This document shows, in pieces, positions 59,442 to 61,777 of a stretch of DNA of 64,000 bases. Source of the DNA: an uncultured Gammaproteobacteria bacterium (GTDB lineage Bacteria; Pseudomonadota; Gammaproteobacteria; Pseudomonadales; Pseudohongiellaceae); the NCBI GenBank assembly GCA_913060695.1, contig CAJXUA010000011.1:40570-104569 (forward strand), written 5' to 3'. A model generated the notes under the pieces. It was not told where the DNA came from. It saw only the letters and a list, made by a program, of their open reading frames with translations, and did not search any database. Every line of letters starts with the position of its first letter. Positions within the stretch are counted from its first letter, which is position 1. Position numbers and translations under genes: made by a program.

Positions 59442-59762
59442 TTAGAACGGCAGCTTGAAGCCCTCTGGCAATTTAAGCCCAGCCGCCATGCCCGACATAT
59501 TGTCGCGGTTCTTCTCTTCGATCTTCTTAACGACATCATTGATTGCGGCGGCTATGAGGTCTTCTATTACGTCTTTGTCCTCGCCCATAAGGCCGGCATC
59601 CAATTCCACCTTCTGTACGTCGTGACGACCATTCATGTGGACTTTGACCAGGCCTGCGCCCGATTCTCCAACCAACACAATCTTGGCGGACTCTTGCTGG
59701 GCACGCTGCATCTGCTCTTGCATTTGCTTCGCTTGTTTCATTAGTTCATTGATATCGGTCAT
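59442..59762 (-). CDS. ybaB: YbaB/EbfC nucleoid-associated protein
   Basis: The 106-aa DNA-binding protein has a long N-terminal helix ([17 protein letters not shown]), the short beta core [20 protein letters not shown] and a C-terminal helix. It binds DNA as a tweezer-like dimer. Its start overlaps the dnaX stop by four bases. Confidence 0.96.
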
Positions 59763-61564
59763 GGCTTTTCCTCGCTCAAAATGCTGACACTATCTGGCAC
59801 GATATACGCCGAGAAAGTGTTAATAATTGCTTGAATATGTTCATCCTCTTCAAACTCAGTGCGCGCCTGCTGTAGCGCTTCTTCGCGCATACGTTGTCGG
59901 AATTGCGCGGGGGACTCAGCGTCGATGGCGCTAATCAGCAAGGTAAGTTTAAGAGCTTTCTTAAAGTGTTCGCTTAGCAACTGCTCTATTCTGCGCCCAT
60001 GCTCTTCGTTGTAAAGCGCGCTTTGTGTCTCGTCTAGTGTGAGTGTCACGCTGTTATCGCTCATGTCCACTAATACGCAGTTGGCCAGAAGATTGCCAGT
60101 AATACCGGTGACGCCAAGATCACGCACAATCTGAATCCAGCGCTCTGTCTGATTACGTGGTGCAGGATCAGCCTCGGCAACTGCGGGAGCTGCATCGCTA
60201 GCAACCGCAACTTCGGCAACCGCTATCGGATCGGGCTCAGGGGGCTGTTCTAGTGTGGCACTTGCGTCTTGCGCTGCGCTCAGCGCTGGCGCATCAGTTT
60301 GACGCTGCGGCTCTACGAGGGGTTCTGGGCTAGGAGCTTGCGTCTGCGTATTGGCATTATCCGGCTCGAGGCGGATTTCCGGCTCTGGCTCGGAGATTAG
60401 TTCAGGCTTTTTTTTTTGCGTATCCGTGCTGTCGTCGGGCGTAGCCGATTCTGCTGTCTCGATAGCGCTCGACGCAGGTGCCTGAGGAGAGAAGACCAGC
60501 ATACGCAGCAGAAGCATCTCGAATGCCATACGCGCATCGAACGCTACGTTCATATCGGCGCGACCATTCAGCGCGATCTGGTAATACAGCTGTACTTGTT
60601 CGGCAGTGAGTTGCTTGGCTATGCCGAGTATCTGTTCGCGATCACCCTGGCTATTGTCGACGCCGCCGGGCACCAGTTGTGCGATCGCGATGCGATGCAG
60701 TAGCGACAGCAAATTATCGAGCAGAAGGAAATAGTCGAATGAACGCGACGCTATCACGCTGACTGTCTCGAGAAGATCGTTGGCGTCCTCGGCATTCAAT
60801 GCCGCTACGATGCGCAGTATTAGTGCCTGATCAGGGGTGCCCAATAAGGTGCTAACCTCTGCTTCAGTAACATTGCCTGCACAGAAGGAAATGCTCTGGT
60901 CTAGCAAAGTCAGTGCGTCACGCATGCTGCCCTGTGCACTCTTGGCGATGCTCCAAAGAGCGCCCTCTTCACAGGGAACCTGTTCTGCAATCAAGACCGA
61001 GCTTAGGTATTCGACGATTTTCTGTGGACTCAGATTCTTCAGGCTAAATTGCAGGCAGCGCGAAAGAATCGTAATCGGTAGCTTATGAGGATCTGTAGTG
61101 GCCAGCAGAAACACGACATGGGGTGGTGGCTCTTCCAGCGTTTTCAACAGAGCGTTGAAACTGTGATTGGAGAGCATGTGGACTTCGTCTATGAGATAGA
61201 CTTTATAACGCCCAACCGATGGTGCGTATTGCACGTTCTCTAATAATTCGCGGGTATCTTCAACCTTAGTCTTGGAGGCCGCATCGACTTCGATTAGGTC
61301 GATAAAACGCCCTTCGCCGATCTCTAAACAAGCGCTACATTTGCCGCAAGGAGTAGAGCTGATGCCCTCTTCGCAGTTTAGGCACTTCGCGAAAATGCGC
61401 GCGATAGTCGTTTTGCCAACGCCGCGGGTGCCTGTAAACAAGTAGGCATGATGTAGGCGTTGATTGTCTAAGGCGTGGACGAGGGTCTGCAGGACATGTT
61501 CTTGACCAGCCATGTCGCTGAATGATTTAGGTCGCCATTTTCTCGCCAATACCTGGTAAGTCAT
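59759..61564 (-). CDS. dnaX: DNA polymerase III tau (and likely gamma) subunit
   Basis: The 601-aa clamp-loader ATPase has Walker A GTRGVGKTT, zinc-site CLNCEEGISSTPCGKCSAC, Walker B LIDEVHMLS and SRC motif (LSRCLQF) in domains I-III (to about 370). A Pro/Glu/Ala-rich linker (about 370-470) leads to the tau-specific C-terminal domain. In the linker a run of ten A residues (minus strand, complement of 60408-60417, codons 383-386) precedes stop codons in both other frames, so a shorter gamma of 387 or 388 residues is probable. Confidence 0.97.
   Translation of the reverse strand: MTYQVLARKWRPKSFSDMAGQEHVLQTLVHALDNQRLHHAYLFTGTRGVGKTTIARIFAKCLNCEEGISSTPCGKCSACLEIGEGRFIDLIEVDAASKTKVEDTRELLENVQYAPSVGRYKVYLIDEVHMLSNHSFNALLKTLEEPPPHVVFLLATTDPHKLPITILSRCLQFSLKNLSPQKIVEYLSSVLIAEQVPCEEGALWSIAKSAQGSMRDALTLLDQSISFCAGNVTEAEVSTLLGTPDQALILRIVAALNAEDANDLLETVSVIASRSFDYFLLLDNLLSLLHRIAIAQLVPGGVDNSQGDREQILGIAKQLTAEQVQLYYQIALNGRADMNVAFDARMAFEMLLLRMLVFSPQAPASSAIETAESATPDDSTDTQKKKPELISEPEPEIRLEPDNANTQTQAPSPEPLVEPQRQTDAPALSAAQDASATLEQPPEPDPIAVAEVAVASDAAPAVAEADPAPRNQTERWIQIVRDLGVTGITGNLLANCVLVDMSDNSVTLTLDETQSALYNEEHGRRIEQLLSEHFKKALKLTLLISAIDAESPAQFRQRMREEALQQARTEFEEDEHIQAIINTFSAYIVPDSVSILSEEKP
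60408..60417 (-). promoter_or_regulatory. A10 slippage/frameshift site in dnaX
   Basis: Ten consecutive A residues on the coding strand cover Q383-K386. After one extra A (or a -1 ribosomal shift) the frame reads Lys-Ala then TGA; after loss of one A it reads Ser-Leu-Asn then TAA. E. coli dnaX makes gamma by -1 frameshifting on an A-rich slippery site, and Thermus dnaX uses transcriptional slippage on an A9 run. Confidence 0.75.
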
Positions 61565-61665: not shown

Positions 61666-61777
61666 GGTACCTCCTGCCAGCCACACCACGGCACATGAGT
61701 CAGCTATTACCGTTGCTCCCTTCCGGGCCTGGCGGGGTTCACAGCTTATCATTGCGAGGGGACCAGCAAGAGATACC
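61666..61777 (-). ncRNA. ffs: 4.5S RNA of the signal recognition particle
   Basis: The minus strand contains the SRP core GCCAGGCCCGGAAGGGAGCA with the GGAA tetraloop, the asymmetric loop, and the pairing second strand CAACGG...TGTGCCG. The ends GGTATCTC and GGAGGTACC pair to close the hairpin, giving about 112 nt. It lies directly upstream of dnaX. Ends are approximate by a few bases. Confidence 0.95.

What the first reader, a model, noticed from the sequence alone, without database searches (positions are those of the whole stretch)
60408..60417. A10 run in dnaX with immediate stop codons in both shifted frames: likely tau/gamma switch
The coding strand of dnaX carries ten A residues at codons 383-386, just after the clamp-loader core and at the start of the flexible linker. 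Reading with one extra A gives Lys-Ala-stop, and with one fewer gives Ser-Leu-Asn-stop. Either event yields a protein of about 387-388 residues with complete domains I-III and no tau tail, as E. coli gamma does. Such a long homopolymer favours transcriptional slippage as in Thermus, not the E. coli ribosomal signal, since I see no clear upstream SD-like or strong downstream stem. A gammaproteobacterium using slippage would be unusual.
Basis: partly seen in the sequence, partly recalled or inferred. Interest (0 to 1): 0.72.

Follow-up and report, generated by a model that had tools for sequence, protein, structure and literature searches.

The report
Poly-A stutter switch in dnaX
The replication gene dnaX of this bacterium carries a run of ten A's, kept in nearly all readable genomes of its family with stop codons waiting in both other reading frames, and this run likely makes RNA polymerase stutter so that the one gene is predicted to give both a long and a short clamp-loader protein.

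Summary
An A10 run lies in dnaX codons 383-386. One extra A gives a 387-aa product and one fewer a 388-aa product, both ending just after domains I-III. It is the only A/T run of ten or more in the 3.73-Mb assembly.

In the window's family (code f1, which holds Pseudohongiella records) 89 of 101 readable dnaX genes keep a run of 9-12 A. Three tests separate these sites from the E. coli-type sites of related families. (1) Stops close both shifted frames within 10 codons at 81 of 84 family sites; at E. coli-type sites only the -1 frame is closed beyond expectation. (2) The Shine-Dalgarno-like element and stem of E. coli-type sites are absent as a group. (3) Outside the family, run phase against the codons is free. 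Transcriptional slippage, as in Thermus dnaX, predicts this. No RNA or protein data were available.

On the tree the family sits beside an E. coli-type clade, so the switch device appears to have been replaced. Long runs also occur in 18 of 120 other gammaproteobacterial families whose stretch covers the site, so slippage-type dnaX may not be unusual there. Known kind of mechanism, large new lineage.

The parts
59759..61564 (-). dnaX, 601-aa full-length (tau) reading frame, stop included
   Evidence: (NF005942 763 bits, cut-off 613)
60408..60417 (-). A10 run, codons CAA AAA AAA AAG (383-386); proposed RNA-polymerase slippage site
   Evidence: run of 9-12 A in 89 of 101 readable family genes
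60402..60404 (-). TGA stop met after one extra A (-1 frame): Lys-Ala-stop, 387 aa
60397..60399 (-). TAA stop met after one lost A (+1 frame): Ser-Leu-Asn-stop, 388 aa
60473..61564 (-). clamp-loader core, domains I-III (residues 1-364), kept in short and long products
   Evidence: PF13177, PF22608, PF12169
59786..60154 (-). tau domain V (residues 471-593), lost in the short product
   Evidence: PF12170
60360..60394 (-). predicted hairpin -16.7 kcal/mol (z -2.4) starting at the 14th base past the run; not kept in the nearest relative

Best explanation
The A10 run in dnaX is likely a transcriptional slippage switch: RNA polymerase is predicted to add or skip an A, so part of the mRNAs would run into a stop codon just after the run and give a gamma-like protein of about 387-388 residues, while mRNAs with 10 or 13 A would give the full tau protein. 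Shown: the run, the stops in both shifted frames, their conservation through the family, the lack (as a group) of the ribosomal stimulators found at E. coli-type sites, and an E. coli-type sister clade. Inferred: that the polymerase slips here, how often, that the short protein is made and used, and that the device replaced a ribosomal frameshift on the branch leading to the family.
For: Run kept in 89 of 101 readable family genes: 87 by script (67 exactly A10, 14 A9, 5 A11, 1 A12), plus L076 (A9) and L340 (A10). Both shifted frames closed within 10 codons at 81 of 84 sites against 21% under codon-order shuffles and 43% under synonymous shuffles; at 46 E. coli-type sites the -1 frame is closed in 98% but the +1 frame in only 41% (expected 29% and 38%, p 0.28). 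The same in a separate set of 13 sites from different gammaproteobacterial families: 11 of 13 closed on both sides, expected 17%, p 0.003 per frame. SD-like pairing -3.0 against -3.1 expected and stem -8.3 against -8.7 at 86 family sites, but -7.8 against -3.6 and -18.0 against -11.4 at 47 E. coli-type sites; the E. coli K-12 control gives -7.4, -19.1, -1 stop at codon 1, +1 stop at codon 12. Outside the family the run's phase is free and only 8 of 23 sites end in AAG. Lys codons elsewhere in these genes are AAA in only 58%. In a purified E. coli system ribosomes slide robustly on A11 but little on A9 or A10 (PMC4363877 passages), and 83 of the 89 family runs are A9 or A10.
Against: No cDNA, peptide or reporter data. 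81 of 87 family sites end in AAA AAG, the E. coli shift heptamer in the right frame, and the -1 stop is the strictest feature (median 1 codon), so ribosomes may contribute. The own genome shows one tRNA-Lys (UUU) and no CUU among 31 of 32 tRNA hits typed, so the two-tRNA-Lys reason proposed for Thermus (PMC5009743 section 21) finds no support. The window's own hairpin (5 of 200 shuffles fold as well). A tree-corrected test of slippage-type against E. coli-type contrasts had 6 supported independent pairs and reached no significance for any of four traits. Three family members have an E. coli-type site and nine have no long run and a short DnaX.
Confidence: 0.78

Rival explanations
1. The short form is made by -1 ribosomal frameshifting at A_AAA_AAG, as in E. 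coli, alone or together with polymerase slippage.
For: 81 of 87 family sites end in AAA AAG in the right frame; the -1 stop follows at once in all 12 readable same-genus sites; only tRNA-Lys UUU was found in the own genome; a hairpin follows in the window.
Against: No SD-like element or stem as a group; the +1 frame is closed too, which a -1 shift does not need; six of 87 family sites lack the AAG ending yet keep a run of 9 or more A; at E. coli-type sites the run is 6-8 A, so a longer run is not needed.
Confidence: 0.12
2. Ribosomes slide on the A run in either direction without special stimulators.
For: Sliding on iterated AAA is shown in E. coli components and ends on out-of-frame stops (PMC4363877 passages); it could use stops in both frames.
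Against: The same passages report robust truncation with A11 and little with A9 or A10; 83 of the 89 family runs are A9 or A10.
Confidence: 0.05
3. The run only encodes a lysine-rich stretch of the linker, kept for the protein, and nothing slips.
For: The run encodes Lys-Lys-Lys and lies in a charged linker.
Against: Lys codons outside the run are AAG in 42%, yet no readable family gene was seen with AAG inside the stretch: the 12 genes without a long run are 3 E. coli-type sites and 9 genes with no lysine pair in the linker at all. Stops in both shifted frames are strongly enriched. Outside the family the last codon of the run is ACA in 4 of 23 sites and AAT, ATT, ACT or AGC in 7 more.
Confidence: 0.04
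4. The run is a DNA-level phase-variation tract that switches dnaX by replication slippage.
For: Homopolymers are prone to replication slippage (PMC1088944 passages); L060 and L340 have a zero-frame stop after the run.
Against: Those two apart, and L082 whose frame stops about 50 codons further on, the family runs of 9-12 A keep the long frame open as far as their contigs reach; tau is generally essential (recalled).
Confidence: 0.01

Closest known systems
Thermus thermophilus dnaX transcriptional slippage
   Same: A-run in dnaX, tau in the zero frame, stops near in both other frames, gamma from slipped mRNAs (PMC1088944 passages; PMC5009743 section 21)
   Different: Thermus has nine A seven-eighths along the gene and two tRNA-Lys; here ten A about 64% along, one tRNA-Lys found, slippage not measured, and relatives with the ribosomal device
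Escherichia coli dnaX -1 ribosomal frameshift
   Same: Heptamer A_AAA_AAG in frame, stop one codon on in the -1 frame, product with domains I-III (control)
   Different: Run of 10 instead of 6, +1 frame closed too, no SD-like element, no conserved stem
Two-ORF dnaX genes with about 10 A (Antonov et al. 2013, PMC3711429, passages)
   Same: A10 tract in dnaX read as slippage; our L060, L340, L284 and L333 have this reversed layout
   Different: There tau needs the shift; here tau is the zero-frame product
Citrobacter rodentium tssM1 and Yersinia pseudotuberculosis tssM3
   Same: Gammaproteobacterial A-runs with measured slippage of about 15-25%; tssM3 gives the shorter product (PMC4256274 passages)
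   Different: Other gene and other function

Membership tests
Thermus-type dnaX slippage switch | A-run of at least nine in the dnaX coding strand after the clamp-loader core | tested here: met
Thermus-type dnaX slippage switch | stop codons close by in both shifted frames | tested here: met
Thermus-type dnaX slippage switch | mRNA population with variable A number | not testable with these tools
   needs cDNA or direct RNA reads
Thermus-type dnaX slippage switch | short (gamma) and long (tau) proteins both made | not testable with these tools
   needs protein data
E. coli-type dnaX ribosomal frameshift | A_AAA_AAG in frame with a stop close by in the -1 frame | tested here: met
E. coli-type dnaX ribosomal frameshift | SD-like element upstream of the heptamer | tested here: not met
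   window -3.3 kcal/mol; family median -3.0, expected -3.1; E. coli -7.4
E. coli-type dnaX ribosomal frameshift | stable stem-loop shortly after the heptamer | tested here: inconclusive
   window has -16.7 starting at the 14th base past the run; nearest relative -5.2; family as a group none
Two-ORF dnaX (tau by frameshift) | zero frame stops just after the run | tested here: not met
   zero frame is open for 601 aa

The most novel reading that the evidence does not exclude
Gammaproteobacteria have repeatedly exchanged the device that makes the short clamp-loader subunit: the ribosomal frameshift was replaced by polymerase slippage at the base of a whole family (Pseudohongiellaceae), turned back within it, and arose many further times, so the short subunit is what selection keeps while the decoding level is free. 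Slippage-type dnaX would then be the commoner type among gammaproteobacterial families.
Probability: 0.55. Interest if true: 0.68.

Novelty: new member of a known kind. Interest (0 to 1): 0.57.

Why it matters
Reviews seen here in passages say that a gamma subunit made by frameshift appears limited to enterobacteria (PMC4456610) or that most other bacteria keep no frameshift signature in dnaX (PMC3290774), and the need for gamma has been disputed. A family-wide slippage-type site beside families with the ribosomal type, with stops in place for whichever frames the device would produce, indicates selection for the short form and gives natural pairs in which the two devices can be compared. It also turns the choice between slippage and frameshifting into a question of lineage that can be tested with ordinary RNA-seq.

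Tried and rejected
Two tRNA-Lys as the reason for slippage (the Thermus hypothesis in PMC5009743): a tRNA-Lys CUU pattern had 0 of 194 hits, but its UUU control found only 3 of 194, so that pair was uninformative; a looser pair gave CUU 0 of 37 and UUU 24 of 37, the UUU control missing all 7 same-genus genomes tried. Rfam tRNA on the own genome gave 32 hits: ARAGORN typed 30 of them and I read one more by eye as tRNA-Asp; the last is a partial at a contig end. One tRNA-Lys UUU, no CUU. The draft may lack some tRNAs.

Tree-corrected independent-pairs test of slippage-type against E. coli-type: 6 pairs on supported branches, no significance for +1 stop, -1 stop, SD or stem. The group contrasts are therefore partly clade contrasts; the one-per-genus set (8 of 8 closed on both sides) and the 13 class-level sites are my answer to this.

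Chance in AT-rich genomes: some class-level runs lie in AT-rich genomes and may be chance, but L231 and L317 have dnaX cores of 67-68% GC.

Paper searches: 'Pseudohongiella' with 'dnaX' found no paper; the other dnaX searches were made, of which I opened only the papers named in this report, in passages or one section. The library misses most subscription papers, and Larsen et al. 2000 is not held, so it is known here only through other papers. Supplementary files of Antonov 2013 were not open to me, so I do not know which species its nine 10-A genes come from.

Full report
Observation. The + strand has ten T at 60408-60417, so the dnaX coding strand has ten A. dnaX runs from 61564 down to 59759, 601 residues, and is assigned to DNA polymerase III subunit gamma/tau by NCBIfam NF005942 (763 bits, cut-off 613). 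Pfam finds the delta'-like AAA+ core, lid, domain III (to residue 364) and tau domain V (residues 471-593). The run covers codons 383-386 (CAA AAA AAA AAG). With 11 A the product is 387 aa ending KKKA, with 9 A 388 aa ending KKSLN, with 12 A 389, with 8 A 386, and with 13 A 602 with the normal end. ybaB and recR follow and an SRP RNA lies upstream.

Rarity. In 64 kb an A10 turns up in 16 of 100 shuffles, so by itself it is not striking; the next longest run in the window is 7. In the whole 3.73-Mb assembly there are 12 runs of nine or more A or T, and only this one reaches ten. The other 11 were fetched; none sits, as I judge it, inside a real coding sequence. Two fall in long open frames but before the likely start, and two in open frames of 103 codons of no known identity.

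The family. A search of 194 relatives found matches in 192. The window's family (code f1) has 119 genomes there. Five named loci match f1 contigs by length and sequence: two are titled Pseudohongiella, three only gammaproteobacterium; one of the three (ErkenSummer_bin-3118) is in the window's genus. Pseudohongiella belongs to Pseudohongiellaceae, Pseudomonadales; that f1 equals this family is my inference. I fetched 101 f1 dnaX stretches and gained one more readable site, L340. One of the 102 (L083) ends at a contig end inside the run, which leaves 101 readable; the other 17 genomes gave no readable site. Of 101, 89 have a run of nine or more A in the linker: 87 by script, of which 67 are exactly A10, 14 A9, 5 A11 and 1 A12, plus L076 (A9) and L340 (A10) (recount). 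Three have an E. coli-type site (L033, L063, L064), and nine, forming one subclade, have a short DnaX of 463-499 aa without a long run. All 12 readable same-genus genes have A10 with an immediate -1 stop.

Two kinds of site. Sites were typed S (run of nine or more A between about codons 334 and 494), R (NNA AAA AAG in frame with 6-8 A), O (other short run) or N (none). After removing six duplicate loci, other families of the order gave 24 R, 16 N, 4 S and 3 O of 47, and the named loci 20 R, 46 N, 3 S, 4 O and one unread of 74 (the unread one is N with a looser parser). E. coli K-12 dnaX, as control, types as R with SD-like pairing -7.4, stem -19.1, -1 stop after one codon and +1 stop after 12; RefSeq annotates its gamma product as joined from two pieces.

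Test 1, stops. For each site the codons after the run were shuffled in order, or only among synonyms. At 84 f1 S sites both shifted frames close within 10 codons in 81, against 21% and 43% expected. Each frame alone is earlier than in all 300 shuffles (z -12.2 and -13.1 by order, -9.1 and -7.7 by synonyms). At 46 R sites the -1 frame is closed early (98%), but the +1 frame is as expected (41% against 29% and 38%, p 0.28). Sites with fewer than 40 codons after the run before the zero-frame stop or the end of the stretch, and so the reversed ones, were left out (three of 87 S, one of 47 R). One random site per f1 genus gives 8 of 8 closed on both sides. A ribosomal -1 shift needs only the -1 stop; polymerase slippage makes both frames.

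Test 2, stimulators. At 47 R sites SD-like pairing is -7.8 kcal/mol against -3.6 expected (p 1e-10) and the downstream stem -18.0 against -11.4 (p 8e-9). At 86 f1 S sites the values are -3.0 against -3.1 (p 0.84) and -8.3 against -8.7 (p 0.82). In f1 the two R sites with six A, L033 and L064, have SD-like pairing of -8.1 and -6.3, while L063 with eight A has -3.5; four same-genus S sites (L008, L010, L014, L015) also reach -5.6 to -5.9, through GAGG directly before the run. The window's own site has -3.3 and a hairpin of -16.7 (z -2.4) that starts at the 14th base past the run; the nearest relative (87% protein identity) folds to -5.2 in the same stretch. So a ribosomal share in this very genome is not excluded.

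Test 3, phase. A ribosomal heptamer must sit in one phase. In f1, 83 of 87 runs end in the same phase and 81 end in AAG, which fits descent from an R-type site as well as a kept ribosomal function. Outside f1, 23 S sites read by the stricter parser (of 25) end in all three phases, 11, 8 and 4, and only 8 end in AAG. Lysine codons elsewhere in the f1 genes are AAA in 58%.

Tree. A FastTree tree of the first 360 residues (313 rows) joins all 100 f1 rows (SH 98). Their sister is a clade of three R-type rows, two of them titled Porticoccus or Porticoccaceae (SH 92 for the joint node); the next group has 58 N, 37 R, 5 S and 4 O. The simplest reading is a change from R to S on the stem of f1, two or three changes back, and one loss. 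S against the rest needs 24 changes. An independent-pairs test had only 6 supported pairs and decided nothing.

Wider class. A draw of 140 gammaproteobacterial genomes, one per family, gave 138 others with a match, some of them weak. I fetched 128 and typed 124: 79 N, 24 O, 18 S and 3 R, with 4 unread (L076, printed with the class, belongs to f1). Four of the N are cut off before or near the site, so the share is 18 of 120. The first 98 were chosen along the E-value ranking, so the most divergent genes are under-sampled. Of 13 class S sites with enough sequence, 11 are closed on both sides (17% expected), and over 15 such sites stimulators are absent (SD p 0.52, stem p 0.56). Some of the runs in AT-rich genomes may be chance. 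L284 and L333 have the reversed layout, in which the zero frame stops and another frame is open, as Antonov et al. described (PMC3711429 passages).

Mechanism. Polymerase slippage on A9 or longer runs is documented in bacteria (PMC1088944 passages), gives gamma in Thermus (same paper; PMC5009743 section 21), and runs at about 15-25% in Citrobacter and Yersinia tssM (PMC4256274 passages). In a purified E. coli system ribosomes slide robustly on A11 but little on A9 or A10 (PMC4363877 passages). The f1 lengths (83 of 89 are A9 or A10) lie in the first range and mostly below the second. The own genome has one tRNA-Lys (UUU) among the tRNAs typed, so the proposal that two tRNA-Lys push Thermus to slippage does not carry over, and A_AAA_AAG should stay somewhat shift-prone. 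I therefore hold slippage as the main device (0.78) and ribosomal shifting, alone or as a share, as the chief rival (0.12).

Novelty. The mechanism is known. New, as far as the searches show, are the family-wide conservation in a gammaproteobacterial lineage, the both-frames stop signature set against an E. coli-type sister clade, and its recurrence across the class. Nothing here shows slipped RNA or a short protein.

Noticed in passing
L060 (G036), L340 (G060), L284, L333: dnaX with run A9-A11 and a zero-frame stop just after it, another frame being open: full tau would need a slipped mRNA, or these are assembly errors in the run.
   Followed up: partly
L064 (G029): Six-A E. coli-type heptamer with a zero-frame stop right after it and a long open -1 frame: tau would need a ribosomal -1 shift.
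   Followed up: partly
L088, L090, L131-L135, L138, L140: A subclade of one genus in the family has a short DnaX (463-499 aa) with no long A run and no lysine pair in the linker, so it seems to have lost the switch.
   Followed up: partly
L191, L192, L096, L157, L160 and other named loci: E. coli-type dnaX sites (A6-A7, SD-like element, -1 stop) are common in Pseudomonadales families such as Porticoccaceae and in Microbulbifer, beyond the enterobacteria, while the Pseudomonas and Marinobacter loci listed, and most Halomonas-group ones, lack a site.
   Followed up: partly
window 61672-61768: Small bacterial SRP RNA gene on the minus strand, just upstream of dnaX.
   Followed up: no
G072, G085, G088, G092 and other family genomes: Several fairly complete family genomes gave no dnaX match in two searches, only weak matches of the kind expected for other AAA+ clamp-loader proteins; probably assembly gaps.
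   Followed up: partly
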